DNA from: Verrucomicrobiia bacterium
Lineage (GTDB): Bacteria; Verrucomicrobiota; Verrucomicrobiia; Limisphaerales; DASXHY01
DNA: 64,000 nucleotides
NCBI GenBank assembly: GCA_035629175.1
Contig: DASPIL010000098.1
Location: 1 to 64,000 of the forward strand
Direction of reading: 5' to 3'
Position numbers and translations under genes: made by a program. How positions within the stretch are numbered: the first letter of the stretch is position 1; each line of letters starts with the position of its first letter. Positions 14,163-64,000 of this stretch are shown in pieces. The notes under the pieces are model-generated. The model had not been told where the DNA came from and did no database searches. It saw nothing but the letters and a program-made list of their open reading frames with translations.

Positions 14163-14247
14163 GCGCATATGGTGGAATTGGCAGACACGCTACTTTGAGG
14201 TGGTAGTGGAGCAATCCGTGCAGGTTCAAGTCCTGCTATGCGCACCA
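14163..14247 (+). tRNA. tRNA-Leu(GAG)
   Basis: An 85-nt type II tRNA. The acceptor stem GCGCATA pairs with TATGCGC, followed by discriminator A and encoded CCA. The anticodon loop TTGAGGT gives anticodon GAG, reading CUC and CUU leucine codons. A variable arm (GGAGCAATCC region) and a T arm with GGTTCAAGTCC are present. It lies in the gap between the divergently oriented BrkB and RHS genes. Confidence 0.95.
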
Positions 14248-14362: not shown

Positions 14363-17300
14363 TTGAAGACGTTTGCTTTTATCGCGATGTTGTTGGCTGC
14401 TGTCGTATCGCCGGCCGGTGGTGCTCCGACTGGCGCCGATATTTCCCCCGCGCCCCTCGCTCCTTCGTCGGGTGTGCTGCCGTTGCGCTTTTCGGAGCAG
14501 CCCGCCACTGACGAAATCAGGAACGCCCGGGTGTTCGATGAGCCGCTTGTTCCGGTCGGGCGCGAACCAGGCCCCGCGGAGAATTCGGCCCTCGCAGCCG
14601 CTTTGCTTGCCTTTTCCCAACGGACGAATCCTGACGATTTTTCGAGTCTCTCTTCCTTCTTGAAGCGGTTTCCCCGCTCCCCATGGCGGGCTGCGCTCCT
14701 CACGAGCCTCGGGATCGAGTATTACCACGGCGCCCATTACTCGCTCGCGCTGGACGCATGGCGGGAGGCATGGGCGCTTGGCAGGAACGCCGCTGATCTC
14801 CCGGGGAAGTTTCAGGCTGACCGGGCGGTGTGCGAGCTCGCTTCATTGTATTCGCGGCTCGGCCGCATGGACGAACTCCACGCGCTGTTGGAGTCGGTAT
14901 CCAATCGCGCCTTTCTCGGCGGGACGGCCGAACGCATCAACCTTGCCCGCGAGGCGCTTCAGATGATGCGGCATCAACCCGGCATTTCCTTTCGCTGCGG
15001 GCCGCTCGCGCTGCAATCCATTGCCCGCAGTCTGAATTCTGACGCGCCCATCGATCCTTCGATTCTCAACGCTGCGTCGGCGCACCGCGGCTTCTCATTG
15101 ACGCAGGTGGCAGAAATCGGGAAGGACGCGGGGTTGAACTATCAGATGGCATTCCGCCGAAAGGGTGGGGCCTTTGTCGTTCCTTCTGTCGTGCATTGGA
15201 AGGTTGGCCATTACGCGGCGATGATCCAGCAGGTGGGAGATCGGTATTTGCTCGAGGATTCCACTTTCGGAAATACGGTGTGGGCAACGCGGCAGACGCT
15301 GGAGTCTGAAACGAGCGGGTATTTCCTGTTGCCGCCGGGAAAGCTTCCGCCGGGATGGCGTGATGTTTCAAATCGCGAAGGCAATCGCATCTGGGGAAAG
15401 GGAGTGACCAGCGGCATCGATCCCGACAACTACACGCCCGACGATTTGCAGGCGGGACAATGTCCGATCGAAGAGATGGGAATGGCGATTTCGCGCGTTC
15501 ATCTCGGGCTGGCAAATTTGCAGATCAGGGATACTCCAGTGGGATACGCCCCGCCCGTGGGTCCAGCAGTGCGATTCACCGTGCGGTATAATCATAGGGA
15601 TTATCTTCAGCCGGCCAGCCAGATCTCCACCGTGCTCGGCCCGAAGTGGAGCCACGACTGGACAGGTCATATCCGGGACACGCCGGCCAATCCGCTTGCC
15701 GAGGTGAAATATTTTGTCGGCGGTGGAGGCGCGCGCACGTTTACGGGTTTCGCCGCAGCAACGCAAACGTTCGCCTTGCAGCAGTTCGATCAGACGCGGC
15801 TGCGTCGCACGGGTCCCAACAGCTACGAGATGCTCTATCGTGATGGCTCGAAAAAGATCTTCGCCTTGCGCAGCGCGAATCGCGTTTACCTGACGCAGGT
15901 TGTCGATCCTGCCGGGAATGCCGTCACATTGACGTACGATGGCAGTCTGCGGCTTGTCTCGCTTACGGATGCGATCGGGCAGGTGACAACGCTTGAGTAC
16001 ACGCAGCCCGGGGCATCGCTTCTCATCACGAAGGTGACCGACCCGTTCGGCCGTTCCGCGCGTTTTGATTACGGAAGCTTTGAGTTGCTGCTCGAGCATG
16101 ATGGCAATCCGAACACGCCACCTGTCCCGACCGATGTGTTTGCATTGACGAACATTACGGACGTGCTGGGACTTTCATCGCGCTTCGAATACGCGGGAGC
16201 TCCGGCGGTCGACACCAACATGACGATCACGCGGCTCACGACGCCGTATGGTGCCAGCACATTTCTCGCAGGGCAGGGCGGCGGGCCGAGTGGATCCACA
16301 CGATTCCTGGAAACTGTCTACCCCGACGGAAGCCGGGATCGTGTTGAATACAACCAGAACACCAATGGCCTTGCGTTCTCGGAGCCTGCGGGCAGCGTTC
16401 CGCAGGGGATCAACGCGTTCAACCAGTGGATGCATGGGCGCAACACATATTACTGGGATCGCAACGCCTGCGCCCAGGCGTATGGGGATTATTCAAAGGC
16501 GACGATTTATCACTGGCTACACTCCCCGAATGTTGCGACGACCGCCGGGATTCTCGAAAGCGTGAAGGCTCCGCTCGAGCGCCGTGTGTGGTACAACTAT
16601 CCGGGCCAGGGCGCGCCATATCATACTACAGGCAGCAGCGACCTTCCCATCCGCGTCGGCCGGGTGCTGGACGACGGAACGACGCAGCTGGACTCGTATG
16701 CTTACAACAGCCTCGGGCGGCTGGTCAGTTCCATTGATCCCATTGGCCGCGAGCTGACCTATATCTACGCGACGAACCAGATTGACCTTTTGGAAATCAG
16801 GCAGACTCGCGGGACGAACAACGAGCTGCTCTTTCAGGCAACATACAATTCACAACACCTGCCGGTGACGATCACAGATGCCGCGGGTCAGACAACCACC
16901 AACACTTACAACGCGCGGGGACAGCTGCTGACGAGCACCAATCCAAAGGGCGAGACCTCGACGTTCACTTACGATTCCAATGGGTATGTCGTGGCGGCTG
17001 ATGGCCCGCTGCCCGGCACGAATGACACGTTCCGGACCACGTACGATGCCCTGGGCCGTGTCCGCACCCGAACGGACGACACGGGGTACACCCTGACCTT
17101 CGATTACGACACGATGGATCGGATAACTCGTGTGACCCACCCCGACAGCACGTACCTTCAATTCACGTACAATCGCCTCGACACGGCAGGGCTTCGCGAC
17201 ACAGCGGGGCGGCAGACATTTTTCGAGCATGACAGCATGCGGCAACTCACAAAGCGGACCGACCCGCTCGGCCGTGTCACGCAATACCAATGGTGCAACT

Positions 17301-19252
17301 GTGGGGGCCTGCGTGGTGTTGTCGATGCCAACGGCCGGATCACACAGTGGGACTTCGATGTGCAGGGCAGGCCCATCGCAAAACAATTTCCGGATGGATC
17401 GGAGATTCGATACGCCTACGAGAACACCACAAGCCGCTTGCGGGAGGTTATCGACGAGAAGCAGCAGGTGACGTTGTACACCTATAACCGCGACAACACC
17501 GTCAAGTCTGTGGTTCACGCGAATGCGGCCATTGCCACGCCGGGAGTCTCTTACACCTATGACCCCGATTATGAGCGGATCACGTCGATGACTGATGGCA
17601 TCGGCACAACGGTGTATTCCTACGTGCCCATTGCGTCACAGCCGGTTTCCGGCGCGGGTGAGATTGCTTCTGTGGATGGGCCGTTGCCGAACGACACGAT
17701 CATTTTCGGATATGACTCACTTGGACAACGCGTGTCGATGTCGATCGGTGGGGTGCAGACTTCGATCGCCTTCGATGAGATTGGAAGGCTTGCGGCGGAA
17801 ACGAATGCGCTGGGAGTTTTTGGATATGCGTATGAGGGAACATCCGATCGGATGGTTTTGCAGACGTCGCCGCATGGCATCACGACCGAACTGAACTATG
17901 CGAGCACGGTTCAGGATCGATTGCTTCAGCGAATGACGCACAAGGCGGGGAGCACTGCGGTGTCGGAATTCATTTATGGGCGCGACATCCCTGCGGGCCG
18001 CGTCGCCACCTGGAGCCAAAGGTTCGGAGCGTTGGCGCCGGACATTTATTCGTTTGGCTACGACGCTGCGAACCAGCTTCTCAGGGCGTCCGTCACCAAC
18101 GGCGGAGCGCCGGTCAAAGAGTTTATTTACGCGTATGATTCAGCTGGCAACCGGGTGCTGGAGCAGGAAGGGGGATTGAATCAGGTCGCAACCTACAATG
18201 CGTTGAACCAGATCAGCACCAGCACCGCGCATGGGGCGAGTCGCACGAATGAATGGGATGCAGTGGACCGGTTGGTGGCGGTGAACACGGGGAGCGCGCG
18301 TACGGAATTCAGCTACGACGGCCTCAGCCGTTTGGCCAGCTTGCGCCAGCTCACGAATGGAGTGGAGGTTTCCTTGCGGCGCTTCGTCTGGTGCGGAGAT
18401 TTCCTCTGTGAGGAACGCGATGCCGCCGGGGCCGTTGTCACGCGGTTTTTCAACCAGGGAATGAAACGCGAAACCGGAGCTGCCGCGGGCAACTATTATT
18501 ACACGCGGGATCATCTCGGATCCATTCGCGAACTGCTGGATGCGGGCGGAAATGTTCGGGCGCGTTATAGCTATGACCCTTTTGGCCGGCGAACGCGGAT
18601 TGCGGGTGATCTCGATGCAGCCTTTGGGTTCGCTGGAATGTTCTGGGTTCCGCAGGCAAACCTGTTCCTGACGCGATTCCGCGCGTATGACCCTGACATC
18701 GGCCGCTGGCTTTCTCGTGATCCAATGGAGTTGGCCGAAGCCCGCGAAGGTCCCAACTTGTATGCTTACGTGGGGAACAATCCGATTAACTTCGTCGATC
18801 CGGAAGGCCTCGCATTTACAACGGCTGATGCGTTTTGCCTAAAACATCCGCTCGTGTGCGCTGAGATTGCAGGCGTCGGCGCTGCGGCTGCGGACCGCGT
18901 CCGGCGTGGAGGCGAGATCCTTCAACGCGGCTGGCAGGCGGTCCAATGCGGTGCTGACAGATTATTGCCGGGAAGGATTCAGGCGATCCGAGAACGAGTT
19001 CCAGAAGCCGTGCGGCAGTTCAAGGATTACCTCAAGGATCCGTGGACGTCCGACAACGTGATGAAGCTCGGCGTGGATTACGCTGCGAAAGGAAAGGAAT
19101 ACTGGGCCACGGTTTACATGGGTCCGCCTCATCTGTGGCTGGAGGTGGGAATGGCCTTTGATGACGCGGCCCTTTTGTTGTCGCAACGCATGGGCATTTC
19201 CCTCGAGGCCGCGCGTTCGTGGCTGAGTTTTATCACGGGGTTCACACCGTAG
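14363..19252 (+). CDS. RHS/YD-repeat protein with C39-peptidase-like N-terminal region
   Basis: A 1,629-residue secreted protein starting at TTG 14363, with a signal peptide (FAFIAMLLAAVVSPAGGA). Residues about 60-190 are TPR-like helices. Residues about 205-330 resemble a C39-like cysteine peptidase fold: Cys in RCGPLALQSIA, then VHWKVGHYAAM with a candidate His and DRYLLEDSTFG with a candidate Asp. DUF6531-like and many YD repeats follow (for example YDALGRVRTRTDDTG). The RHS core ends in GPNLYAYVGNNPINFVDPEG, followed by a unique C-terminal piece of about 130 residues with no family I recognise. RHS shells usually encapsulate a C-terminal toxin. No obvious immunity gene follows; the next gene is a secreted repeat protein 12 bases on. 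Confidence 0.9.
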   Translation: MKTFAFIAMLLAAVVSPAGGAPTGADISPAPLAPSSGVLPLRFSEQPATDEIRNARVFDEPLVPVGREPGPAENSALAAALLAFSQRTNPDDFSSLSSFLKRFPRSPWRAALLTSLGIEYYHGAHYSLALDAWREAWALGRNAADLPGKFQADRAVCELASLYSRLGRMDELHALLESVSNRAFLGGTAERINLAREALQMMRHQPGISFRCGPLALQSIARSLNSDAPIDPSILNAASAHRGFSLTQVAEIGKDAGLNYQMAFRRKGGAFVVPSVVHWKVGHYAAMIQQVGDRYLLEDSTFGNTVWATRQTLESETSGYFLLPPGKLPPGWRDVSNREGNRIWGKGVTSGIDPDNYTPDDLQAGQCPIEEMGMAISRVHLGLANLQIRDTPVGYAPPVGPAVRFTVRYNHRDYLQPASQISTVLGPKWSHDWTGHIRDTPANPLAEVKYFVGGGGARTFTGFAAATQTFALQQFDQTRLRRTGPNSYEMLYRDGSKKIFALRSANRVYLTQVVDPAGNAVTLTYDGSLRLVSLTDAIGQVTTLEYTQPGASLLITKVTDPFGRSARFDYGSFELLLEHDGNPNTPPVPTDVFALTNITDVLGLSSRFEYAGAPAVDTNMTITRLTTPYGASTFLAGQGGGPSGSTRFLETVYPDGSRDRVEYNQNTNGLAFSEPAGSVPQGINAFNQWMHGRNTYYWDRNACAQAYGDYSKATIYHWLHSPNVATTAGILESVKAPLERRVWYNYPGQGAPYHTTGSSDLPIRVGRVLDDGTTQLDSYAYNSLGRLVSSIDPIGRELTYIYATNQIDLLEIRQTRGTNNELLFQATYNSQHLPVTITDAAGQTTTNTYNARGQLLTSTNPKGETSTFTYDSNGYVVAADGPLPGTNDTFRTTYDALGRVRTRTDDTGYTLTFDYDTMDRITRVTHPDSTYLQFTYNRLDTAGLRDTAGRQTFFEHDSMRQLTKRTDPLGRVTQYQWCNCGGLRGVVDANGRITQWDFDVQGRPIAKQFPDGSEIRYAYENTTSRLREVIDEKQQVTLYTYNRDNTVKSVVHANAAIATPGVSYTYDPDYERITSMTDGIGTTVYSYVPIASQPVSGAGEIASVDGPLPNDTIIFGYDSLGQRVSMSIGGVQTSIAFDEIGRLAAETNALGVFGYAYEGTSDRMVLQTSPHGITTELNYASTVQDRLLQRMTHKAGSTAVSEFIYGRDIPAGRVATWSQRFGALAPDIYSFGYDAANQLLRASVTNGGAPVKEFIYAYDSAGNRVLEQEGGLNQVATYNALNQISTSTAHGASRTNEWDAVDRLVAVNTGSARTEFSYDGLSRLASLRQLTNGVEVSLRRFVWCGDFLCEERDAAGAVVTRFFNQGMKRETGAAAGNYYYTRDHLGSIRELLDAGGNVRARYSYDPFGRRTRIAGDLDAAFGFAGMFWVPQANLFLTRFRAYDPDIGRWLSRDPMELAEAREGPNLYAYVGNNPINFVDPEGLAFTTADAFCLKHPLVCAEIAGVGAAAADRVRRGGEILQRGWQAVQCGADRLLPGRIQAIRERVPEAVRQFKDYLKDPWTSDNVMKLGVDYAAKGKEYWATVYMGPPHLWLEVGMAFDDAALLLSQRMGISLEAARSWLSFITGFTP

Positions 19253-19264
19253 GCGGGAGGAACA

Positions 19265-22200
19265 ATGCGAGACGCCAGGCGCCCATCCGAATTTTCTCTG
19301 CGAACACAAGGGTGCGCCTCAGTTGGTCTCACGAGATTCATCGCCGCGATTCTCCTTTGCGAGTTGCTCACCATCGGACTCGCCCAGCCGGCACGATTCG
19401 TTTTCGATCCCAATGGCAATCTCGAGGTACGCGACGGCGTCGAAAACCAACCGCCGCACATTGTGCGCCAGCCGACGGACCATGTCGTGCAGCCGGGAGC
19501 GCTTTCCTCGTTTTCAGTGGTGGTGGCGGACACGAGGGGCGTGGCGTATCAATGGCGACTCAACGGCTCGCCGTTGCTCGGGGCCACCAACGATTCTCTA
19601 TTGATATCACCGGCCAACCAAGACGAAGGGGCATATTCCGTGGTGTTGGTGAACGGTGGGGGAAGCGTGACAAGCGCCCCGGCCCTCTTGTTGATCGATG
19701 GCGACCGCGACGGACTGCCCGATTCCTGGGAGCAAAATCACTTTGGCGGACTTGGACAGCGTTCTGACGGCGATTTCGATGGCGACGGTGTTTCGAACCG
19801 AGACGAGTACCGCGATGCGACGAATCCGGCTGATGTGGCATCAGTTCTTTTCCGGCTGACGGTAATCAGCGATGGGGGGCACGTCACTGTGAGTCCAAGC
19901 CGTTTTGGCTTCACCAATGGAGAGATGGTGACGTTGACCGCGACGGCATTTGCTCCCAACACCTTCCATGGATGGGCGGGCGCGACGAATTCGCTGGAGC
20001 CGGTGATCAGCCTGAAGATGGATTCCAACAAAACGATCTTCGCCTTGCTTGGCTCCTACAATGTCGCATGGACCAACAACACGGGCGGGAATTGGAATGT
20101 CGCCTCGCATTGGAGTCCGAATGTCGTCCCGGGCTCGAACGACACCGTCAGCATTCCGCGCGGCGTCGTCGTCACGCTCAATTCCGATGCCGCCGTGTCA
20201 AGCCTCGTCATGGGAGGCGCGGGGTCGCCCACTTTGGCAGGGGCAGGCACCTTGTTGCTGCATCGGAATTCATCCTGGTCTTCGGGAACGATGAGCGGCG
20301 CGGGACGCACCATCGTGGCTCCTGGAGCCACACTCACGGTGGCGAATGGCAGCGCAGTGGGCTTGTCGCGGACACTTGAAATCGGCGGAACGCTGCTTTG
20401 GACCGGAGCCAATATTAACATGAACAACGCGGTGATCACCAATCGGCCGGGAGGGCTGGTTGAGGCGCGAGGTTCAGGAGGGCTGGCTTACAACGGAGGC
20501 ACGCCGCGATTTGACAACGCGGGCACATTTCGAAAAGCAGTGCACACCGGAACCACCGCGTTCACGAGCGTCGGCTTCAACAACTTCAACGTCGTTGAAG
20601 TGCAAACGGGCACGCTCTCACTCGCTGGAGGCGGTTTCAATGGCGGCGCAATTCACATTCCCGCTGGCTCGGCCCTTGTATACGCAAGCGGGACGCAGGC
20701 TTCAATCGCGGGGTCGAGTATCACAGGCGGCGGAAACCTGACGATCAGTGGCGGCACGGTGAACCTTGCAGGGTTGGTGGATCTGCGCGGTACGCAGTCC
20801 GTGAACAACGGCGTCGCGAACTTCACCGGCAACTTCATCTGCACCAACAATACGCTGAACATCGCCGGCGGAACGGCAAACTTCAGCGGCACGGGAATCG
20901 TCAGCCCGGCGATTCTGAACCTGGGCGGCGGCACTCTGAGCGGGAATCAGGCCGTAACTGTTCTTGGTGCGATGAACTGGACTGGCGGCAGCATGAGCGG
21001 AAGCGGCCGCACCGTGATTCCATCAGGTGTGACCCTGACCCTCGCCAATGCCAACGCAGTGGCATTGAATCGAACGCTTGAGAATGGCGGCACGCTGTCG
21101 TGGACGGGTGCCAACATCAGCATGAACAATTCCGTGATTACGAACCGCCCGGGCGCGCTGTTTGAAACCCGCGGAAGCGGCGGTTTGGCTTTCAACGGAG
21201 GTTCTCCGCGAGTCGATAATGCCGGCACATTTCGAAAAACGGTCCACACAGGAACAACCGCGCTCACCAGCGTTGCCTTGAATAATTACAACACGGTCGA
21301 ACTGCAAACAGGGACGCTGTCCCTGAGCGGTGGTGGTCTCAACGCAGGCACGATTCACGTTCCCGCTGGATCGGCCCTGGTGTACGCCAGCGGAACCCAC
21401 ACGGCGATCGCGGGATCCGGCATCGCAGGCGATGGAAACCTGACGATCAATGGCGGCACGGTGAATCTCGCGGGGTTGGTTCATCTTCGCGGCACGCATG
21501 CGGTGAACAACGGTGTTGCGAACTTCACCGGCAACGTCATCTGCACCAACAACACGCTGAACATCGCAGGCGGAACGGCGAACTTCAGCGGCACGGGAAT
21601 CGTCAGCCCCGCGACTCTGAACCTGGGCGGCGGCACTCTGAGTGGGAATCAGGCCGTAACTGTTCTTGGCGCGATGAACTGGACTGGCGGCAGCATGACC
21701 GGAAGCGGCCGGACCGTGATTCCATCAGGTGTGACCCTGACCCTCGCCAATGCCAACGCAGTGGCATTGAATCGAACGCTTGAGAATGGCGGCACGCTGT
21801 TGTGGACGGGCGCCAACATCAGCATGAACAATTCCCTGATTACGAACCGGCCGGGCGCGCTGTTTGAAACCCGCGGAGGCGGCGGTTTGGCTTACAACGG
21901 AGGTTCTCCACGAGTCGACAATGCGGGGGTGTTTCGAAAGGTGCTCCACGCGGGCACGACTGCGTTCACCAGCGTCGCATTGAACAACTTCAATGTCGTC
22001 GAACTGCAAACGGGAACGCTGTCTCTGAACGGCGGCGGTTTTAACAGCGGGTCGATTGAAGTTCCTGCTGGGACGGCACTCGTATTCGCCAACGGAACTC
22101 ACACTTCGATCGCTGGATCGAGTATTGCAGGCGGCGGAAATCTGACAATCGGCGGCGGCACGGTGAATCTGGCGGGGTTGGTGGATCTGCGCGGTACGCA

Positions 22201-23248
22201 CTCCGTGAACAACGGCGTTGCCAACTTCACGGGCCATTTCATCTGCACCAACACCACGCTGAACATCGCAGGCGGAACGGCAAACTTCAGCGGTGCGGGA
22301 ATCGTCAGCCCGGCGACTCTGAACCTGGGCGGCGGCACTTTGACGGGGAACCAGGTCGTGACTGTGCTTGGTGTGATGAATTGGACCGGCGGCAGCATGA
22401 GCGGGAGCGGCCGCACCGTTATTCCCTCCGGGGTCACCCTGAACGTCGCCAATGCAAACGTAGTGGGGCTGAACCGGAGACTAGAAAATGCCGGGACGAT
22501 GTTGTGGACGGGATCCACTGTCAGCATGAATAACTCGGTCATCACCAATTGGCCCGGAGCGCTCATCGAAACACGCGGCTCGGGAGGGTTGGCTTACAAC
22601 GGAGGTTCTCCACGATTCGATAACGCAGGCACCTTCCGAAAGGCAGTGCACACCGGGACAACAGCACTCACCAGCATTCCCTTCAACAACTACAACGTTG
22701 TGGAAATCCGCAGCGGAACCCTTGCGCCGAACGGCGGCTTCAACTCCACCACCAATTCCGTATTGGAATGCGTCCTAGCCGGGCTCACTCCCGGCGTTCA
22801 ACACGGACGTATTCAGTTCACCGGGCCGATTGCGCTGTCCGGGACACTGCGCGTGAGTTTCACAAATAGCTTTGTACCTGGAGTCAGCGACTCCTTCACT
22901 GTTGTTGCAGCGAGCAGTCGCCAGGGCTCGTTCCAGAACTTTTCCTATCCTTCGGGCGAAGTGACAATGATCGTCAGCAACACGCCCAACGCCGTTGTGG
23001 TGCGGGTTTTAGATGTGCTGACAGGTGCTGCGCGCCCGCTGCTCACCGCATCGCGGAGCGGAACCAACCTCTTGTTGCATTGGACGGCCGAGCCGAACGC
23101 AACGTACCGATTGGAATATTCTGATGCGTTGGAGGGTGGCCCATGGAACGTACTTGCGGGAGACGTGACAGCGCTTACAAATTTTGCGCAGAAAGTGGAG
23201 ATCCTCGGCCCAACCAACCGTTTGTATCGCCTGCGCGTGCTTCCATGA
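19265..23248 (+). CDS. Large secreted repeat protein (Ig-like, calcium-loop, beta-repeat)
   Basis: A 1,327-residue protein with a signal peptide ending near LAQ (about residue 40) and a good ribosome-binding site (GGGAGG, 19257-19262). Order of parts: Ig-like domain (about 65-135); calcium-loop segment DGDRDGLPDSWEQNHFGG with DGDFDGDGVSNRDEY; a bacterial InlB_B-like repeat (GGHVTVSPSRFGFTNGEMVT, GWAGATNS); then a Gly/Asn/Thr-rich parallel-beta-like region with a 234-residue unit repeated; and a C-terminal module ending TNRLYRLRVLP. The repeats resemble passenger domains of adhesins, although no autotransporter barrel or PEP-CTERM signal is present. It is probably cotranscribed with the RHS gene. 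Function is unknown; an extracellular adhesin or structural role is inferred. Confidence 0.8.
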   Translation: MRDARRPSEFSLRTQGCASVGLTRFIAAILLCELLTIGLAQPARFVFDPNGNLEVRDGVENQPPHIVRQPTDHVVQPGALSSFSVVVADTRGVAYQWRLNGSPLLGATNDSLLISPANQDEGAYSVVLVNGGGSVTSAPALLLIDGDRDGLPDSWEQNHFGGLGQRSDGDFDGDGVSNRDEYRDATNPADVASVLFRLTVISDGGHVTVSPSRFGFTNGEMVTLTATAFAPNTFHGWAGATNSLEPVISLKMDSNKTIFALLGSYNVAWTNNTGGNWNVASHWSPNVVPGSNDTVSIPRGVVVTLNSDAAVSSLVMGGAGSPTLAGAGTLLLHRNSSWSSGTMSGAGRTIVAPGATLTVANGSAVGLSRTLEIGGTLLWTGANINMNNAVITNRPGGLVEARGSGGLAYNGGTPRFDNAGTFRKAVHTGTTAFTSVGFNNFNVVEVQTGTLSLAGGGFNGGAIHIPAGSALVYASGTQASIAGSSITGGGNLTISGGTVNLAGLVDLRGTQSVNNGVANFTGNFICTNNTLNIAGGTANFSGTGIVSPAILNLGGGTLSGNQAVTVLGAMNWTGGSMSGSGRTVIPSGVTLTLANANAVALNRTLENGGTLSWTGANISMNNSVITNRPGALFETRGSGGLAFNGGSPRVDNAGTFRKTVHTGTTALTSVALNNYNTVELQTGTLSLSGGGLNAGTIHVPAGSALVYASGTHTAIAGSGIAGDGNLTINGGTVNLAGLVHLRGTHAVNNGVANFTGNVICTNNTLNIAGGTANFSGTGIVSPATLNLGGGTLSGNQAVTVLGAMNWTGGSMTGSGRTVIPSGVTLTLANANAVALNRTLENGGTLLWTGANISMNNSLITNRPGALFETRGGGGLAYNGGSPRVDNAGVFRKVLHAGTTAFTSVALNNFNVVELQTGTLSLNGGGFNSGSIEVPAGTALVFANGTHTSIAGSSIAGGGNLTIGGGTVNLAGLVDLRGTHSVNNGVANFTGHFICTNTTLNIAGGTANFSGAGIVSPATLNLGGGTLTGNQVVTVLGVMNWTGGSMSGSGRTVIPSGVTLNVANANVVGLNRRLENAGTMLWTGSTVSMNNSVITNWPGALIETRGSGGLAYNGGSPRFDNAGTFRKAVHTGTTALTSIPFNNYNVVEIRSGTLAPNGGFNSTTNSVLECVLAGLTPGVQHGRIQFTGPIALSGTLRVSFTNSFVPGVSDSFTVVAASSRQGSFQNFSYPSGEVTMIVSNTPNAVVVRVLDVLTGAARPLLTASRSGTNLLLHWTAEPNATYRLEYSDALEGGPWNVLAGDVTALTNFAQKVEILGPTNRLYRLRVLP
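20291..22740 (+). repeat. 702-bp in-frame tandem repeats, three full units plus a partial fourth
   Basis: The marker ATGAGCGG / ATGACCGG (peptide GSMSGSGRTVIPSGVTL or its variants) occurs at 20291, 20993, 21695 and 22397, each exactly 702 bases apart, or 234 codons. Units 2 and 3 are nearly identical over long stretches. Unit 1 and the partial unit 4 are more diverged, a pattern expected from recent expansion of the central units by unequal recombination. Confidence 0.92.
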
Positions 23249-55478: not shown

Positions 55479-56450
55479 TCAATCATTCCTAAGATTCTTA
55501 ACAATTGGAGCAAATACTCGTTGCATCGTCTCAAGTTTCTGCCGCAGCCAATCGAACTGTTCCGACCATAATCTTTCGTTAAGAAAGTCTGCATCCTGAC
55601 GCACTGCCAGCCGACATGCTTTTTTTCCTTCGATGTTGCGCCAGCGCAAGGCAAACCCAAGGTCGCTCTCAATCTGGGATTTGCGTTTTTCAAGTGCTGC
55701 GAAATCCTGTTTTGCCGTGTTTCCTTCCAAATATAGCTCAGCTCGAATTTCGGGACCTAGTCCGCCCGGCTCAGAGTTTACCGTCGATATGATGGATGTG
55801 AGATGCAATCCCGCACGACCCAGCGCGTGATTCATCCAGTGCTGTGGAAATGGTTTCTGGCACTTCACTGAACTCTGTCTCTTCTCCATGTAATCCTTGA
55901 ATGCGGTCCAGAACCTTAATTGGAACTGATTATGTGCAGACATCTCGCCTTGCGCCGCCTGCTGCACCGACCGCGTCCAGTCGTTGGGTTTGCTGACAAT
56001 GTTAAACTTCGGAGCGATCGGCGAATCTCCGATTCGCCACAATTCTACTTCCAAGCCGAAGAAGGTGATCTTCTCATCAGTGCGTTCGTTTAACCAATCC
56101 AATGCCGCCCGATGTTCCTCCGTGAACCGTTCTGCCACCCAAACAATAGTCACGGCTTCCAGCCCCGCGGCGTATGTGAGCAACTGGCCTAAATGACAGT
56201 GATCGGTGCGCTCCAGTTGATTCTCGATCAATACCCAGGCATCGGATGCCGTGTCTTTGCAGAGAATGTCGGCGCGAAATGGCCCCACTTCCTTTTCCTG
56301 TGCCTCACATTCCAGTTCGATGCCGATGGTTTCGCCGAGCAGCTTAAGGTTCTCAGGCTCGGCCAGCCAGGGTGTGAATTGGCCGGATTCCGAAAGCCAC
56401 ACCTCCCGGAGATCAATCTTCTGTAAACGACCTAGACTTTTAGTGTTCAT
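55479..56450 (-). CDS. DUF4268 protein with PD-(D/E)XK-like domain
   Basis: A 323-residue protein. The N-terminal half has a nuclease-like pattern: Glu in IGIELECEAQEKEV, Asp in GPFRADILCKD, and a Glu-x-Gln in WVLIENQLERTDHCHLGQLL, followed by LTYAAGLEAVTIVWVAERF. The C-terminal half is DUF4268 (FWTAFKDYMEKR, LGFALRWRNIEGKKACRLAV). Related proteins are frequent in defence islands and may cleave or bind phage DNA; activity is untested. Its ATG overlaps the upstream stop (ATGA), so it pairs with the unknown 56447 gene. Confidence 0.78.
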   Translation of the reverse strand: MNTKSLGRLQKIDLREVWLSESGQFTPWLAEPENLKLLGETIGIELECEAQEKEVGPFRADILCKDTASDAWVLIENQLERTDHCHLGQLLTYAAGLEAVTIVWVAERFTEEHRAALDWLNERTDEKITFFGLEVELWRIGDSPIAPKFNIVSKPNDWTRSVQQAAQGEMSAHNQFQLRFWTAFKDYMEKRQSSVKCQKPFPQHWMNHALGRAGLHLTSIISTVNSEPGGLGPEIRAELYLEGNTAKQDFAALEKRKSQIESDLGFALRWRNIEGKKACRLAVRQDADFLNERLWSEQFDWLRQKLETMQRVFAPIVKNLRND

Positions 56451-57379
56451 GAATCTGGCTCTTCGGTTTCAGACGCCCGTGCCACGTACGCGACCACAGC
56501 AGTCGTAATGGCCAGAATCATCTGCGATTCGAGCTGGTCGTAATGCGGGTTGGGAGAGTGGTGCGGCGGATTCGAAGCGTCCTTTATTGCGCCAAGGGTG
56601 CTGTTCAGCCAATCGTATGTCGCCTTTCCCATCTTCTTCTCCCAACTTTTCTTCAGGACAGGAATTTTACGGGATTCGGTGTGACTTGGATCAACAGAGA
56701 CAAGATCAAAAAACTTTTCCAAGGCCATCCGGCATTTCCCGACGGCATCGTCATAATAGCCGAGACGATGCTTCTCCTCTGCCTGCTTTAATGATTGAAA
56801 GGAGTGATCGAGAGCCTGGCAGGATTCCAACGGAACCGCCGGAAACTCTACGATATGAATTTTGCCGTATCCGATCCCAGGCAGGACATGCTCGATCCAA
56901 TCTGATTGTGAGATTTCAATTCCTTCCTGCAGTCTGGCCAGAAAAAGATTTTCGAGTTCCCATGCCGCCTCACTTGCCACAATTACAGGACGATGTTCGT
57001 CGATATGTAGGTCAATCCAGAGGTCCAGTTTTACCGAGCCTCCTTCTCGATACTGCTCCAAAGCGTAAATTTGCTGAACGTCTAAACCGAAATCCAACGT
57101 CAGATGGGTCGAAACTCTACCATCTTCAGGCTTCATCAAACGGTTAACATATTCAGTCCTTGCCTCGGCGATTCTCGTTGTTTTTGGAAATCGAAGCTGC
57201 GCTTCAGCCGTTCGGAAGACATAACGCTTGTGTGAATCGCGTTGAAACGAAATTGACAGTGGAACCTGCCAGTAAAGGGACGCGCAGCCTGGATTGCCAG
57301 ATCCCCACAGATTGGAGGTACTCTTATCCAGTTCGATCAACATTCCAGTTGGACCGCCGCGGAATTGTGGATGGCTCAT
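56447..57379 (-). CDS. Unknown cargo protein paired with DUF4268
   Basis: A 310-residue protein I do not recognise. The first two thirds look beta-rich (FGLDVQQIYALEQYREGG, KLDLWIDLHIDEHRPVIVA). The last third is helical and contains HRLGYYDDAVGKCRMALEKF, reminiscent of HEPN-like or abortive-infection helical domains, though no clear RNase motif is seen. The ATG at 57379 lies one base after the stop of an hsdR remnant; an earlier in-frame start at 57403 falls inside that remnant. It is coupled to the DUF4268 gene by ATGA. Confidence 0.65.
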   Translation of the reverse strand: MSHPQFRGGPTGMLIELDKSTSNLWGSGNPGCASLYWQVPLSISFQRDSHKRYVFRTAEAQLRFPKTTRIAEARTEYVNRLMKPEDGRVSTHLTLDFGLDVQQIYALEQYREGGSVKLDLWIDLHIDEHRPVIVASEAAWELENLFLARLQEGIEISQSDWIEHVLPGIGYGKIHIVEFPAVPLESCQALDHSFQSLKQAEEKHRLGYYDDAVGKCRMALEKFFDLVSVDPSHTESRKIPVLKKSWEKKMGKATYDWLNSTLGAIKDASNPPHHSPNPHYDQLESQMILAITTAVVAYVARASETEEPDS

Positions 57380-57380
57380 G

Positions 57381-57608
57381 TTATTGTTCGAATCCGAGCA
57401 CAACCGGAAACGCCGCCAGCGGGATTTTCGGGTTCAAAGCCGCCAGCTTGGATTGCAGCCGTTCGAAAAGAAAAACCTGCTTGTAGTCCGTGCGCTCCGC
57501 CGCTGCTTCGCCCGGCGCGATGGTCAGGCCGGACAAAACCTCATAGCCCAGTCCAGTGAGCCAGTCGCGGGTGGCTTGTTCGACGATGGTTTCCGTCAGT
57601 TTAGTCAT
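57381..57608 (-). pseudogene. hsdR 5' head remnant
   Basis: A 75-codon frame. Residues 1 to about 62 match an HsdR N terminus (YEVLSGLTIAPGEAAAERTD, YKQVFLFERLQSKLAALNPK). This is close to the remnant at 52953 and more distant from the intact HsdR. After NPKIP the match breaks into an unrelated 12-residue tail and a TAA. The ATG directly follows the TAA of the AAA-DUF4435 gene, and its own stop is one base before the next ATG, so it is precisely fitted between two genes. Confidence 0.85.
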
Positions 57609-59213
57609 TTAGATGGCGGGCTTTGGAACTACTGTTTGCAAAGCTTCAATGAATTCTTGTGCGTTCTCGCTCCGAAGCCATCGCATAATCTGGTCAGAAT
57701 ATTTGAGCGCGAAGACTGCGCCTGCTTCTGAGGCCAAACCTTTAATTTTGTAATAGCGGAGAGCCGCGCTGAAATCATTGTCTGTACTCACACGGCCAAT
57801 CTCGGTTTCCCACCTTTTGTAAATCTCGGTTGGATTGATGGCGGCGCATGCGCTCGTAAAAGCAGTTGCTAACGCTTCTGCCCCATCCTCACCTTTACCA
57901 ATGCGCCGGAGCTTCATCTCCATTTCTTGTCGGGTTAAGTTTGAAATGACTTGGACACTGTTTCTTTTCAGTGATTCCAGCACACGGGATTTAACCTGTG
58001 CCGCTGTCTCGTCTGGGTTTCGACCAAGCTTAGTCGCGGCAAGCCTTAGAACAGGCTCAACGAGAAACAGGTTTTCGACGAGCGCGACAGGAAGCACCGC
58101 TACACCGAGCTTATTAAGCATCTGGATGTCAGCCTCCGAACGACCATCATTATCAACTAGGCCGCCGCAAGTATTGTGATGCAGTTCCGCCATTGCAGCA
58201 AAACTCCGCGTTGAGTGTATGACAACCTCGCACGAGCCGCATGGCACAACTGTGTATTGAGGAAAGACTTTGCCGTAGATGAAGTAGTCCAGGTTGTCAC
58301 GCTCTCCTTCAACGAAAAGAACTGGGCGGCGGCTTCCCATTACTTCCAGAAGCATCGATTCGGGAAACGCGTCTGTTTCAGGGACTTCTTCCCAATCCCA
58401 TTTGTCATTTGTGTATTCACGCAGCCAAACTTTTGTTGCGTCTTTTCGTGACGCGGCGAAGCCAAGATCGTGAGTGATGTAAACAAATGTGCAATCCGCT
58501 CTGGCAACCTCGACAGCGTCCCAAAGCCGCGATTGAATCGCTCGGTGAAGGTGCAACTCCGGCTCATCTACAATAAAGACACCATTCTTCGGCGCGCTTA
58601 AAGCCTCGCCAATTAAATGAAAAATTCCCCGTTCCCCGTCGCTCATTTCCTTGGCGTGATAGGATTTGGAGTCTTTCCGGTTTCGTGCTTCGATTCGGGT
58701 GCCAGTAATAATCAACTCGCGCGAAGGCAGGATTGTCTCCCAGATCTTTTTTACCACATCCAACCTCGTCACTGGAGGAGCAACATATTGGTTTTCCGCC
58801 TGCATCGTGACGCGATATTTGTCGCTGACCGTAAAACTTTCGGAAACCATGAGCGTAACCAAAGGTTCGAAGTCGGCGAGTAAAGCCGTCGCTGGTTTGT
58901 TTTGCCATCTGGTGTGGAGGCGATGATGCGCGAAGTCCGTAATGGAGTGATGGCCCGAAAACAACCTGAGTTCTGCTTCCTGATAATCTCTAGGCTGGAC
59001 TCGCTCAGGAAAAACCAGAGATCGATGTGCCCCGACGCGGTGATGCAATTTCGCATCTCTGGAATCGAGCCAAGCTCCAAAACGTGTTTTACCAGACCCA
59101 TTCGCTCCAACAACGACGAGCACACGGTCTTTTAGAGGTAGGATGTGCCCGTTCGGATGCTTGACCGTTGGTGGCATGGGAACATAGCGAATGGAAGGGT
59201 TGTTCATACTCAT
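57609..59213 (-). CDS. AAA ATPase fused to DUF4435/TOPRIM nuclease (PARIS AriA-AriB-like)
   Basis: A 534-residue protein. The N-terminal ABC-type ATPase has Walker A GANGSGKT (about 36-43), a signature-like MSDGERG (about 190), Walker B VFIVDEPELHLH (about 208-219) and an H-loop TFVYITHDLGF. The C-terminal half fits DUF4435, a TOPRIM-like fold: VLFVEGERDNLDYFIYG (catalytic Glu in VEG, about 300), VVPCGSCEVV, and GLVDNDGRSEADIQMLNKLG with Asp residues. PARIS uses an AriA ATPase and an AriB DUF4435 effector that is released when anti-restriction proteins are sensed; some versions are single fused genes. OLD-family nucleases are the alternative. Its ATG overlaps the upstream stop (TAATG). Confidence 0.75.
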   Translation of the reverse strand: MSMNNPSIRYVPMPPTVKHPNGHILPLKDRVLVVVGANGSGKTRFGAWLDSRDAKLHHRVGAHRSLVFPERVQPRDYQEAELRLFSGHHSITDFAHHRLHTRWQNKPATALLADFEPLVTLMVSESFTVSDKYRVTMQAENQYVAPPVTRLDVVKKIWETILPSRELIITGTRIEARNRKDSKSYHAKEMSDGERGIFHLIGEALSAPKNGVFIVDEPELHLHRAIQSRLWDAVEVARADCTFVYITHDLGFAASRKDATKVWLREYTNDKWDWEEVPETDAFPESMLLEVMGSRRPVLFVEGERDNLDYFIYGKVFPQYTVVPCGSCEVVIHSTRSFAAMAELHHNTCGGLVDNDGRSEADIQMLNKLGVAVLPVALVENLFLVEPVLRLAATKLGRNPDETAAQVKSRVLESLKRNSVQVISNLTRQEMEMKLRRIGKGEDGAEALATAFTSACAAINPTEIYKRWETEIGRVSTDNDFSAALRYYKIKGLASEAGAVFALKYSDQIMRWLRSENAQEFIEALQTVVPKPAI

Positions 59214-59653
59214 TATGAAAGGTCTTCGATGATGGTCTTGATCCGGTTTTCCCGGAACAGATTCCAAACTCCTTTGTGTTTCATCTTATGGCCCTTTCCG
59301 TTGCAAACCGGCACGCTGCCAAACATTTCACAGAACTTTACCAACAAGGCGCGCTCCAATCGAAACCACGTCCGCACGTGCTTACGTCCCTTGCAGCTGA
59401 CAATCGCGACGGTAAAACTTTTTACGCCGTGAAGATTGAGAATCTTATTTGCTCGGTATGCGACACTTGAAGCGATTCGTGAGAGCCCCTTCTTGGTCGT
59501 TCCGATATAGGCAATCTTTGAACGTTCGCTTCCATATTTGAGCTTCTTGTTTGCTTTGATCACATAAACCAACCGTTCCTTCCCGAGACTCAAACGCGTC
59601 ACGTGCATTGCATCTTCCGTGGGAAGCGAAACATTGAGGCGGCGTGCAGACAT
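59213..59653 (-). CDS. Putative GIY-YIG-like nuclease-fold protein
   Basis: A 146-residue basic protein. RLVYVIKANKKLKYG with IAYIGTTKKGLSRI fits the spaced strands of a GIY-YIG domain (VYVI then AYIG in place of GIY and YIG), followed by an Arg-rich helix and a Glu in FRLERALLVKF. The GKGHKMKH motif near the C terminus may hold the Asn/His position. The match is by pattern only. It is coupled at both ends: TGATG with the hsdS-tail mini-ORF upstream and TAATG with the AAA-DUF4435 gene downstream. Confidence 0.55.
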   Translation of the reverse strand: MSARRLNVSLPTEDAMHVTRLSLGKERLVYVIKANKKLKYGSERSKIAYIGTTKKGLSRIASSVAYRANKILNLHGVKSFTVAIVSCKGRKHVRTWFRLERALLVKFCEMFGSVPVCNGKGHKMKHKGVWNLFRENRIKTIIEDLS

Positions 59654-59772
59654 CAGTTGAAGGGTTTATTTGTTGGCACGCGCAACTCGCCCGAGAGCGG
59701 CTTGGGCAGCAGCGCGTCGCGCAGTGCAACGAGGGTTGCGGGAAATGTTGCAATCTGATTAAAACTGCTCAT
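59653..59772 (-). pseudogene. hsdS 3' tail remnant forming a 39-codon mini-ORF
   Basis: The frame has a 12-residue unrelated start, then [19 protein letters not shown], the HsdS C-terminal tail, then TNKPFN. About 66 bases align with the end of intact hsdS, with a few mismatches. The ATG overlaps the SLATT stop (ATGA), and its TGA overlaps the next ATG (TGATG), so it acts as a translational bridge whatever its product does. Confidence 0.85.
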
Positions 59773-60371
59773 GGAGTCACGACTGGCGTTCGAAGCCAAC
59801 AGATAACGAGGAGAACAATCACCGCTGCGACAATAACTCCAACACTCAATGTGAAGCTGAGGGGAAGTTTGTCCCGAAAGAACTTAAAATGCTTTTGTTC
59901 GTTAATCCAGTCAATCTGGTGTTCCCAAAAGAATTTGTAGTGAGCGAACCAACCGCTGAAAAGAATCTGATCGCTGATTCCGGTTTTACCGTATTCCTCT
60001 TCGAGTGCCGCCAACTGCCGCTCCAATTCGGGCAAATCTGCATCTTTGGCTGCTTTGACATTGAAGTAGAGCGCCTTCAGTTTGTTAAAAAGTTGAGTCA
60101 GCTTCTGGCCAACCTCCGCATACTCCGCCTTTTTGTGGTCGTATAGCGCAATGCTGATTCCCAAAACACCCAGCACGATGAACGCCGCTGAAAAAACCTT
60201 CGTTGCTAGCCAATCAACGAAAAGCGAAAAAATGCCGATTGCAGTTGAAGCAAAGCCAATGACTGCTGGCACTTTGTCTGTAATGTCGTATGTGGCAAAA
60301 TGTTTCTTCGCACCGAACCCAACATTGTAAGCGGTGTCAGCGATATGCTTCAACAAATCTGGCTTTGTCAT
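59769..60371 (-). CDS. SLATT-domain two-TM effector of a CBASS-like pair
   Basis: A 200-residue membrane protein of the SLATT family (SMODS and SLOG-associating). Family sequence includes DTAYNVGFGAKKHFATYDI, an N-terminal pair of transmembrane helices (about residues 38-58 and 60-77), then LTQLFNKLKALYFNVK, ILFSGWFAHYKFFWEHQIDW, and a third hydrophobic helix near 170-192. SLATT proteins are proposed pore-formers triggered by nucleotide signals, killing infected cells. The ATG overlaps the CD-NTase stop (ATGA), the expected order for an enzyme-effector pair. Base composition is visibly more AT-rich than the hsd genes. Confidence 0.88.
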   Translation of the reverse strand: MTKPDLLKHIADTAYNVGFGAKKHFATYDITDKVPAVIGFASTAIGIFSLFVDWLATKVFSAAFIVLGVLGISIALYDHKKAEYAEVGQKLTQLFNKLKALYFNVKAAKDADLPELERQLAALEEEYGKTGISDQILFSGWFAHYKFFWEHQIDWINEQKHFKFFRDKLPLSFTLSVGVIVAAVIVLLVICWLRTPVVTP

Positions 60372-61675
60372 GTGTTAGTAGTAATTGGGACGTGTATGCG
60401 ATCCTTCGCAACAACGACTCCGTTTTTGATGGCGTAACATTCAACGACATGATCACCCTTAAAGTTTGTCGTTTCGGTTTTTTGTTGATGGCCCTTGTCA
60501 TCAACAATTTCGCCTCGAATGCAGTCTCTTTTTTGTGCCTCTTCGCCTCGATTGAGCACTTTCCATTTAAGCTCATAAGGTGGAGGCACAGTGTTTTGGA
60601 CAACACTGAAATTCAGATCCTTGTTCGCCAGCAATGGAATATGATACGCAATCATTTCTCGAAGCCGACGCTCAAGAAATCCCCTTTGTTTCACATCACA
60701 GTCAAGTTTCAGCGTGTAGCGAATGTCGACGGGAAAAAGGTCTTCAATGAATTCCTCAGTATTTCGCCAGGTGGCGGATGCCATTGCCGTTTTGGCCTCC
60801 TCAACTGCCTCGGCAGCAGCCGGGAACTGCCGCCCATAGACTTTTTTCCACTTTTCATTAACATTTTTCTGTTTCTTGTCCTGCGCTTCAATCGCTGCAA
60901 GGCAGAGGCGATGCGCCTTTCTTGCCTTTCGTTGAAACTTCTTCCTGACCTTTACATGCTGGCCACTGCCCGGCGCTGCGTAACGATCCTGTTCCGGCTG
61001 CTCACCCAAATACTTAAAAAAATCTCGGCTAAGCAAGTCGTAGTAAAGGTAGCTGCGACCGTCGTAATCTTTTGTGCTTTCCAGAAAATTGTAGGCTAGT
61101 GTATCGATTAAAAGGCCGCTCATTCCCAAGCCGTGTTTATTCTTCCATGCTCGCGCCATTTTGCAGAGCCGCTTCAAATTCAAATTCTTGGCGTTATCCA
61201 GCTTGGTAACGGCCTCCATTTCTTCGCGCGGCTTGGTTATTTTCCAACTACCTTCGTCTTTCGTGTCCGGATATTTATAGCTTCCGTCGTCCTGTTCAAA
61301 CACCGGCTGAATTTCGACATGGAAGTCTGCGTATGTAACCGTCACGACCAAGCGGTCCACACGAACATCTGTTGCGGGATACCGGGTGACTACCGCAGCT
61401 TTTACGTCCTGCAAAAGCTTTAGCTGCCGCCCGTCCTTGTAAGTGTTCCACTCTCCTTTCGGCATGATGTAAAGCATGTCCAAGTCAGAGATGCCATCAA
61501 TACCTGTATTCCTTCCGAATGAACCAACTTGAAGGACGTTCGCTGTTTTGGATTCCGTGTCTCGGAACTTTTTATTGAGCGCGGCTGTTAGCTCGCCGTA
61601 GCGAAGACTGATCGTCTCCGTGTTCTGGATTACGAGGTTGCCGAGAAAAACACTAAACATGTCAGCTACGGACAT
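60368..61675 (-). CDS. CD-NTase (SMODS-type) with AGS-C sensor domain
   Basis: A 435-residue nucleotidyltransferase of the cGAS/DncV-like superfamily. The active site is VGSFGRNTGIDGISDLDML (GS at 51-52, metal-binding DLD at 64-66), with a third acidic residue probably in FHVEIQPVF. The C terminus (about 320-430) matches the AGS-C sensor domain seen in CBASS operons: PPPYELKWKVLNRGEEAQKR, then DHVVECYAIKNGVVVAKDRI. It should synthesise a cyclic or linear oligonucleotide signal upon phage infection and activate the SLATT effector downstream. The start at ATG 61675 overlaps an hsdS-tail mini-ORF by 14 bases. No ubiquitin-like (Cap2/Cap3) or HORMA accessory gene is present. Confidence 0.88.
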   Translation of the reverse strand: MSVADMFSVFLGNLVIQNTETISLRYGELTAALNKKFRDTESKTANVLQVGSFGRNTGIDGISDLDMLYIMPKGEWNTYKDGRQLKLLQDVKAAVVTRYPATDVRVDRLVVTVTYADFHVEIQPVFEQDDGSYKYPDTKDEGSWKITKPREEMEAVTKLDNAKNLNLKRLCKMARAWKNKHGLGMSGLLIDTLAYNFLESTKDYDGRSYLYYDLLSRDFFKYLGEQPEQDRYAAPGSGQHVKVRKKFQRKARKAHRLCLAAIEAQDKKQKNVNEKWKKVYGRQFPAAAEAVEEAKTAMASATWRNTEEFIEDLFPVDIRYTLKLDCDVKQRGFLERRLREMIAYHIPLLANKDLNFSVVQNTVPPPYELKWKVLNRGEEAQKRDCIRGEIVDDKGHQQKTETTNFKGDHVVECYAIKNGVVVAKDRIHVPITTNT

Positions 61676-61838
61676 AACCCTCCTTCGTTTCGCGCGCCCG
61701 CAACTCGCCTGAGAGCAGCTTGGGCAGCAGCGCGTCCCGCAGCGTGGCGATGGCCAACGGGAGCAGCCCGTCATCAACGCAACGCGCTCCGCCATTATCG
61801 ACGGCACATTTGTAAACGTAAATGCGGTGCTCCCTCAT
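61662..61838 (-). pseudogene. Chimeric mini-ORF: unknown 30-residue start plus hsdS 3' tail
   Basis: A 58-codon frame with a GGAGG ribosome-binding site seven bases before its ATG. The start MREHRIYVYKCAVDNGGARC is unrelated to HsdS and loosely recalls Nmad2-like nucleotide-modification domains, a weak impression. From residue 31 it becomes [17 protein letters not shown], the HsdS tail, then RETKEGYVRS. It appears to be a gene whose body was replaced by an hsdS end. The ATG overlaps the stop of the tail remnant upstream, and its end overlaps the CD-NTase start. Confidence 0.75.
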
Positions 61839-61920
61839 GCTGTGACCTCCGTGAATTTTGCGGCCGTCGGAACGCGCAACTCGCCCGAGAGGAGCTTGCG
61901 TGGCTCCGGTAGCCTAGCAT
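61835..61920 (-). pseudogene. hsdS 3' tail remnant
   Basis: A 28-codon frame containing [11 protein letters not shown], the HsdS terminus, and ending in FTEVTA followed by TGA. The intact HsdS ends comparably, in AELVETTA. Only about 30 bases clearly match hsdS. Its TGA overlaps the following mini-ORF ATG as ATGA, the same coupling used by the real hsdS and its downstream gene. Confidence 0.7.
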
Positions 61921-61959
61921 CACAAAATGAAAGTCGGTGGTGGAGTTGTTTCATTTCCG

Positions 61960-63821: not shown

Positions 63822-64000
63822 AGCCGAGCTTTGTCAGATTTGCCCGAATCGCCTTCTCCAGCTTTGCCGATTCGACGAATTGTTCTTCGAGCGTGGCGGT
63901 GAGGCGTTTCATCTTTTGCTCGAAGGGTTCGGAATCTTCTTCCACTTCCGCCGCGCCCACGTAGCGGCCGGGCGTGAGCACGTAATCGTGTTTGCGGATT
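63811..64000 (-). CDS. hsdM: Type I restriction methylase subunit HsdM, C-terminal end (partial)
   Basis: The final 62 codons before the right edge. They include [19 protein letters not shown], typical of the end of the HsdM methylase domain, then [20 protein letters not shown] and a terminal helix ending TKLGYES. The stop lies 11 bases inside hsdS. HsdM transfers methyl groups to adenine in the recognition site; its catalytic NPPF-type motif would be beyond the window. Confidence 0.93.

What the first reader, a model, noticed from the sequence alone, without database searches (positions are those of the whole stretch)
14363..19252. RHS protein with an N-terminal C39-peptidase-like part and an unrecognised C-terminal tip
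The RHS shell is preceded by a Cys-His papain-like region (RCGPLALQ, VHWKVGHYAAM), unusual compared with classical RHS toxins. The C-terminal about 130 residues after the DPEG core are unique, as expected for a toxin, but there is no immunity-like gene; instead a large repeat protein follows 12 bases later. The peptidase could process its own shell or a partner.
Basis: partly seen in the sequence, partly recalled or inferred. Interest (0 to 1): 0.5.

Follow-up and report, generated by a model that had tools for sequence, protein, structure and literature searches.

The report
Toxin cage with a borrowed strand
This bacterial gene makes an exported, barrel-shaped toxin-type cage with a built-in protease; the cage lacks one short piece of wall that its relatives have, and the very next gene makes a large exported protein that begins with just such a piece, so the second protein probably plugs itself into the cage.

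Summary
The ORF at 14363-19252 is real: an exported TPR-C39-RHS protein. The C39 part is a C39-type peptidase by profile, fold and a near-invariant Cys-His-Asp triad. The 147-residue tip is unrecognised and nearly unique; the aspartyl autoprotease residues that should release it are intact. C39-RHS proteins form a widespread subfamily that my paper searches did not find described. Several relatives have toxin-like tips and a small neighbouring gene.

The window's gene is of another type. Its next gene, like that of every scorable close relative, encodes a large exported protein whose mature N-terminus is a YD hairpin (Q-x2-3-F-x-F/Y-D-x-x-G-N-L). These shells lack a YDxxGNL hairpin that all scorable relatives without such a partner carry: 31 of 31 against 46 of 46, including 18 of 18 scorable loci in a test with a rule noted beforehand. 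I infer that the partner donates the hairpin in trans and so docks on the cage. That step is not shown: the shell might simply be one repeat shorter. The C39 substrate is unknown; the partner is an unlikely one.

The parts
14363..19252 (+). C39-RHS protein (P0001, 1629 aa), exported RHS cage with N-terminal peptidase
14363..14425 (+). signal-peptide-like N-terminus (residues 1-21), TTG start
   Evidence: read from the translation; no signal-peptide program was run
14483..14962 (+). TPR-like helical domain (about residues 41-200)
   Evidence: AlphaFold model; matches to TPR proteins
14996..15331 (+). C39 peptidase domain (residues 212-323); C212, H283, D299
15470..18808 (+). RHS/YD shell and RHS core (about residues 370-1482)
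18215..18253 (+). 13-residue link (residues 1285-1297) between the LNQI strand and WDAVDRL, where relatives without a partner carry a YDxNGNL hairpin; proposed vacant wall position
   Evidence: comparison
18719..18799 (+). predicted aspartyl autoprotease dyad D1453 and D1479, motif PxxxxDPEGL
   Evidence: motif as stated in PMC8765631 (passages)
18809..19249 (+). C-terminal tip (147 aa), fold unresolved, mostly helical low-confidence model
19265..23248 (+). partner gene P0002 (1327 aa): signal peptide, YD hairpin tag, Ig-like and G8-like parts, long glycine-rich repeats
19385..19432 (+). YD hairpin tag QPARFVFDPNGNLEVR at the predicted mature N-terminus of the partner (residues 41-56)

Best explanation
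A two-gene exported RHS system. The first gene makes an RHS cage with an N-terminal TPR-C39 module and a C-terminal tip that the cage's own aspartyl autoprotease should release, as in other RHS toxins. One hairpin of the shell, the YDxNGNL repeat that relatives carry between the LNQ strand and the WDAENRL strand, has been lost from this protein. The second gene makes a large secreted protein whose mature N-terminus, right behind the signal peptide, is a hairpin of that kind. After export the partner's hairpin fills the vacant place, completing the wall and tethering a variable body (Ig, InlB-like, RCC1, Calx-beta or glycine-rich repeats) to the cage as an anchor or target-binding arm. SHOWN by sequence: both genes, the missing hairpin, the tag, its place behind the signal peptide, the co-occurrence, C39 fold and triad, autoprotease residues. 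INFERRED: a vacancy in the wall, physical insertion, export of both, toxicity of the tip, role of the partner body. The C39 peptidase, also kept in family members without partner, most likely cuts on the N-terminal side of its own shell (about 0.35 for that step).
For: Tag is exclusive: a profile of 22 tags gives 24 full-length matches (E<1e-8) in 146 genomes, then a gap to 1.6e-5; 22 of 24 lie downstream of a C39-RHS gene on the same contig and strand, 2 at contig ends; 2 of the 24 were not in the profile (at most 45 candidates per genome were scored). Of eight weaker matches opened, six are YD repeats of RHS-type frames, so the tag is YD-like. Missing hairpin: 31 of 31 partner-bearing shells, 12-15 aa link; present in 46 of 46 shells without partner (45 clear, L155 a variant). 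Rule noted, then run on loci fetched afterwards: 11 of 11 and 7 of 7 scorable loci agree, 5 with partner, 13 without; the 5 are 26-39% identical to the window N-terminus. GN signature: 44 of 45 cis hairpins, 29 of 32 tags, 25 of 274 other YD hairpins in partner shells (Mann-Whitney p 3e-7). Stretches of solved RHS proteins 8qja and Tse5 that align there, at low score, hold YDAQGNL and FDALGNL. Both autoprotease Asp in 31 of 31. In nine partners scanned the bodies differ while the tag stays.
Against: No complex was modelled or measured, and no coordinates of solved cages were inspected. RHS spirals vary in repeat number, so one hairpin fewer need not leave a hole: phmmer aligned the window with RhsA (7q97) across this place without a large gap. 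Kinship limits the statistics: the partner label needs 5 changes on the tree, only 2 forced by well-supported branches, and the independent-pairs test has no power. Only 8 of 32 tags exceed the 95th percentile of other YD hairpins. Only 5 of 22 tags match RHS_repeat, best E 0.024. Nothing shows that the tip is toxic, and no immunity gene is visible.
Confidence: 0.55

Rival explanations
1. Fission relic or shorter spiral: a rearrangement took one repeat out of the shell and left a YD hairpin at the start of the second gene as a vestige; the shell closes with one repeat fewer and nothing docks.
For: A deletion from one gene and the same kind of motif in the next is what a rearrangement leaves; the link is short and uniform; RhsA aligns across it without a large gap.
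Against: D and G of the tag are invariant and Q and N at least 90% conserved in 22 sequences of 43% mean column identity; bodies behind it are exchanged while it stays; it directly follows the signal peptide. A relic should decay.
Confidence: 0.22
2. Ordinary RHS polymorphic toxin beside an unrelated surface protein; co-occurrence reflects common descent of a two-gene block.
For: 24 of 31 partner-bearing rows fall in one clade; all are Verrucomicrobiota where a phylum is named.
Against: No full-length tag elsewhere in 146 genomes; distant lineages repeat the pattern: L266, L267 and L269 (partner, no hairpin) against L265 (hairpin, no partner; read by eye) in a clade with full support.
Confidence: 0.12
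3. Detoxified scaffold (compatible with docking): in the partner-bearing type the cage no longer delivers a toxin, and cage plus partner form a surface fibre or adhesin, as teneurins reuse the fold.
For: Of 30 partner-type tips scanned only two match Pfam at E<=0.01: DUF7689 and a weak Hydro_N_hd; several tips are proline- or cysteine-rich; tips slightly shorter (p 0.026, 30 against 35 rows); no immunity gene.
Against: Autoprotease residues kept in 31 of 31; tips diverge as polymorphic toxins do; the L101 tip resembles an endolysin (PHROG lysis E 3.6e-4).
Confidence: 0.35
4. The C39 peptidase processes the partner, as bacteriocin C39 domains cut leader peptides.
For: The partner is co-encoded and starts with a short N-terminal element; the fold is that of leader peptidases.
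Against: Relatives without the partner keep the triad too: of 39 rows only L103 (His) and L051 (Asp, in a poorly aligned stretch) deviate, both without partner; no Gly-Gly leader seen in the tags.
Confidence: 0.1

Closest known systems
RHS toxins of type VI secretion (RhsA of Pseudomonas protegens, Tse5)
   Same: YD shell, core domain with PxxxxDPxG[WLF] autoprotease, variable tip; RhsA also loses its N-terminal part by an unidentified mechanism (PMC8765631, passages seen)
   Different: Here a signal-peptide-like start, TPR and C39 lie in front of the shell; one hairpin is missing and a tagged partner follows; PAAR, VgrG and chaperones were not searched for
Tc toxin TcB-TcC
   Same: A cocoon built from two polypeptides (recalled)
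   Different: There the shell is cut into two large parts; here the second chain would give a single hairpin and otherwise non-RHS domains
Polymorphic toxins with peptidases (Zhang et al. 2012)
   Same: Constant N-terminal part, RHS repeats, variable tip; a C39-like domain, Tox-PLC39, is listed among toxin domains (PMC3482391, passages seen)
   Different: Here C39 is N-terminal, before the shell; a partner instead of an immunity gene
C39 peptidases of peptidase-containing ABC transporters (PCAT1, ComA)
   Same: Profile match, fold, Cys-His-Asp
   Different: No transporter attached; predicted to be exported; the Gln recalled about six residues before Cys is mostly Pro
Donor-strand complementation in chaperone-usher pili (recalled)
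   Same: N-terminal extension of one subunit fills a structural gap in another
   Different: No kinship claimed; a YD hairpin and an RHS wall instead of an Ig-like fold

Membership tests
RHS/YD-shell proteins | tandem YD repeats | tested here: met
   PF05593 5e-50, TIGR01643 2.8e-37
RHS/YD-shell proteins | RHS-associated core with two-Asp autoprotease | tested here: met
   TIGR03696 73.2 bits; D1453 and D1479, motif PINFVDPEGL. Cleavage itself not tested
C39-RHS shells without partner (this family's other type) | YDxxGNL hairpin between the LNQ and WDAENRL strands | tested here: not met
   absent in P0001; present in 46 of 46 scored shells without partner
Peptidase family C39 | profile score | tested here: met
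   26.2 bits on the domain, 23.2 on the N-terminus, cut-off 22; 20 bits on the whole protein is below it; 39 of 39 members match at E<=0.01
Peptidase family C39 | papain-like C39 fold | tested here: met
   model pLDDT 93.2; 6mpz Z 12.7, rmsd 2.7, 117 aligned; best Foldseek E only 1.3e-3
Peptidase family C39 | catalytic Cys, His, Asp | tested here: met
   39, 38 and 38 of 39; aligned with 6mpz and ComA
Peptidase family C39 | oxyanion-hole Gln before Cys (recalled) | tested here: inconclusive
   column six before Cys is mostly Pro; not covered by the alignments
Polymorphic toxin systems | constant N-terminus with variable tip | tested here: met
   N-terminus in 27 of 146 genomes, tip in 2 of 146, both counts including its own
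Polymorphic toxin systems | adjacent immunity gene | tested here: not met
   next ORF is the 1327-aa partner; small genes follow several relatives, such as L184
Polymorphic toxin systems | toxic tip | not testable with these tools
   no Pfam match; tip model pLDDT 60
Tc toxins | TcB beta-propeller and TcA partner | not tested
   not searched for

The most novel reading that the evidence does not exclude
The shell has a standing vacancy in its wall, and a portable YD hairpin of about 15 residues serves as a docking plug: any secreted body that carries it behind the signal peptide is built into the cage by donor-hairpin complementation. This would be a plug-in architecture for RHS cages, with exchangeable arms.
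Probability: 0.5. Interest if true: 0.85.

Novelty: new variant of a known kind. Interest (0 to 1): 0.72.

Why it matters
RHS and teneurin cages are, as far as I recall, seen as self-contained shells apart from the TcB-TcC pair. A cage that takes one hairpin from another protein would show how such shells can be anchored or aimed, would offer a short natural docking tag, and would explain why large repeat proteins sit beside these RHS genes in Verrucomicrobiota. The pairing can be tested directly with two purified proteins. A C39 peptidase fused in front of RHS cages in several phyla also gives a candidate for N-terminal processing of the kind left unexplained in RhsA.

Tried and rejected
Tip identity: no Pfam or PHROG match and no clear homologue apart from G025; one search also lists 12 weak partial matches at E 5e-4 to 0.01, not opened. 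The two-sequence AlphaFold model reached only pLDDT 60, so no fold search was run on it.

A chance neighbour was considered: seven matches, four of which seemed to include the tag without a C39-RHS neighbour (G026, G018, G070, G129), proved to be internal Ig-like domains without the motif. Of eight weaker tag matches opened six are YD repeats of RHS-type frames, L222 is a small secreted protein without a proper motif, and L224 is an unexplained short frame with a tag-like start. The other weak matches were not opened.

Single-protein search of solved structures gave only antibody fragments at E>0.2. A relaxed automatic scoring of the hairpin was too noisy (it called several partner rows 'present' by taking a wrong anchor) and was replaced by reading the segments by eye. 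Rows L179, L180, L181 and L290 were dropped as unclear, rows such as L049, L152, L175 and L289 (hairpin, downstream unknown) and L040, L094, L099, L100 (partner, broken frame) as not scorable. Four of the 36 tags seen (L091, L094, L099, L100) were left out.

Not found in print: searches showed no paper on N-terminal C39-RHS fusions or hairpin donation to RHS cages; listings were read, and passages of three papers only.

Full report
What is there. The ORF 14363-19252 encodes 1629 residues: a signal-peptide-like start, a TPR-like helical domain, a C39 peptidase domain, an RHS shell with core, and a 147-residue tip. Twelve bases later a second protein with a signal-peptide-like start, 1327 residues, begins. 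A tRNA-Leu gene ends 115 bases upstream of the RHS start codon.

The peptidase. An AlphaFold model from 39 homologues has pLDDT 93.2 and pTM 0.89. Against solved structures the C39 part aligns with the AMS/PCAT double-glycine protease 6mpz (Z 12.7, rmsd 2.7, 117 residues) and with ComA, tied in Z with helical repeats that match the TPR part. Foldseek's best E was 1.3e-3, none at or below 0.001. A profile of the domain finds 6mpz at 5.7e-9 and ComA at 7.3e-6, with Cys, His and Asp aligned. All 39 homologues match PF03412 at E<=0.01. C212 is kept in 39, H283 in 38 and D299 in 38 of 39; the exceptions, L103 and L051, are rows without partner. The position six before the Cys, where C39 enzymes have a Gln as I recall, is mostly Pro.

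A family. N-terminal homologues occur in 27 of 146 genomes, its own included, four of them in this genome. A named scan kept 80 of 85 loci; 43 of the 80 titles name Verrucomicrobiota, the rest Pseudomonadota, Myxococcota, Acidobacteriota, Fibrobacterota, Melainabacteria and others, many of them MAGs. Among 28 tips scanned, one matches GH-E, one LHH and one a colicin-type DNase (which does not say which; by motif L050 and L051, both without partner, are the first two). A PT-HINT domain precedes the tip in Chthoniobacter flavus (L145). Small genes follow directly in several relatives without partner, one matching DUF6572 (L184) and one HEAT-like (L145). So the family as a whole looks like polymorphic toxins. 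The window's tip has one clear homologue, in G025 at 32-33%.

The partner. In the window's clade every scorable C39-RHS gene is followed by a large exported-type protein: 25 rows in the tree, plus L136, which that tree labelled 'none' but whose contig carries the tag; 6 rows of the clade were unknown. Just behind the signal-peptide-like stretch lies Q-x2-3-F-x-F/Y-D-x-x-G-N-L or a close variant. In 22 aligned tags D and G are invariant, Q and N at least 90% conserved. A search of 146 genomes with these tags gave 24 full-length matches, 22 downstream of a C39-RHS gene on the same contig and strand and two at contig ends; two of the 24 were new to the profile; at most 45 candidates a genome were scored. 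In nine partners scanned the bodies behind the tag vary: Ig and InlB-like, Calx-beta, 11-15 RCC1 repeats, or DUF11 (one partner given in part).

The missing hairpin. Shells without partner carry a YD-x-N-GNL hairpin between the LNQ strand and the WDAENRL strand. Shells with partner run directly from one to the other in 12-15 residues (the script mis-anchored several rows, which were read by eye). Stretches of solved RHS proteins 8qja and Tse5 that align there hold YDAQGNL and FDALGNL, but these stretches score only 15.8 and 14.2 bits, and RhsA aligns with the window across the place without a large gap. So the alignments to solved cages do not by themselves prove a hole. The scoring rule was noted and run on newly fetched loci: 4 partner/no hairpin and 7 hairpin/no partner (18 loci, 7 not scorable); 1 and 6 (20 loci, 13 not scorable, among them L289 with hairpin but unknown downstream). 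No discordant case in 18; a random pairing would do this once in 8568, ignoring kinship (L259 and L284 are sisters). On the discovery rows the same code gave 30 concordant and 7 discordant calls, the latter explained on inspection by a wrong anchor (window, L033, L037, L038, L105) or a missed partner (L044, L101). Reading the rows by eye gives 31 of 31 against 46 of 46, from about 140 non-identical loci; the others have contig ends, broken frames, unknown downstream or unreadable regions. L155 counts as a variant hairpin.

How strong. The tags resemble the lost hairpin more than other YD hairpins do (p 3e-7), chiefly by the GN signature (44 of 45 cis hairpins, 29 of 32 tags, 25 of 274 others). 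However, some tags were recognised with a pattern that asks for N, D or S there, and only 8 of 32 exceed the 95th percentile. The tree needs 5 changes, of which 2 are forced by well-supported branches; formal pair tests have no power. One good contrast is L265 (hairpin, no partner, read by eye) against L266, L267 and L269 (partner, no hairpin), in a clade with full support.

Mechanism. I conclude that the partner most likely supplies the hairpin in trans and so attaches to the cage. Both autoprotease aspartates are kept in 31 of 31 partner-type shells (26 by script, whose pattern asks for the first Asp, 5 by eye; the second is invariant in the 30 rows), so the tip is probably still released. 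The RhsA paper gives the motif, shows that changing either Asp blocks C-terminal cleavage, and reports an N-terminal cleavage of unknown mechanism (PMC8765631, passages seen). The C39 domain is a candidate for such a step here; since relatives without partner keep it, the partner is an unlikely substrate. Whether the tip is a toxin is open: of 30 partner-type tips only two have a Pfam match at E<=0.01; L101 has an endolysin-like tip.

Literature. Zhang et al. 2012 list a C39-like domain among toxins and describe other releasing peptidases (PMC3482391, passages). The Akkermansia outer-membrane proteome reports YD repeat proteins (PMC4960237, passages). Other papers were seen only in listings.

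Noticed in passing
window 14163-14247: tRNA-Leu(gag) gene ends 115 bases upstream of the C39-RHS start codon; not checked whether the block is an island.
   Followed up: no
window 56001-64000: G+C falls from about 0.58 to about 0.50 and GC skew turns negative from 48 kb on.
   Followed up: no
window 19265-23248: The partner body holds several long near-identical glycine-rich repeats (read); Tandem Repeats Finder lists none at periods up to 500.
   Followed up: partly
L105: The nearest named relative is a MAG titled Akkermansia muciniphila; a same-order genome, G167, has a frame of the same length, so the title may be wrong.
   Followed up: no
L142, L148, L157, L160, L253, L254 and others: In many shells without partner an insertion of roughly 70-80 residues, Ig-like by eye, lies directly before the YDxNGNL hairpin, so this wall position also tolerates added domains in cis.
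   Followed up: partly
L145 (Chthoniobacter flavus): C39-RHS protein with a pretoxin HINT domain and a HEAT-like small gene next to it.
   Followed up: partly
L101 and L140: Two partner-bearing proteins outside the main clade have an endolysin-like tip (L101) and a DUF7689 tip with a weak amidase match (L140).
   Followed up: partly
L224 2330-2410: Short frame with a tag-like start (AQQADFQFDPAGF); its neighbours were not examined; possibly a broken gene.
   Followed up: no
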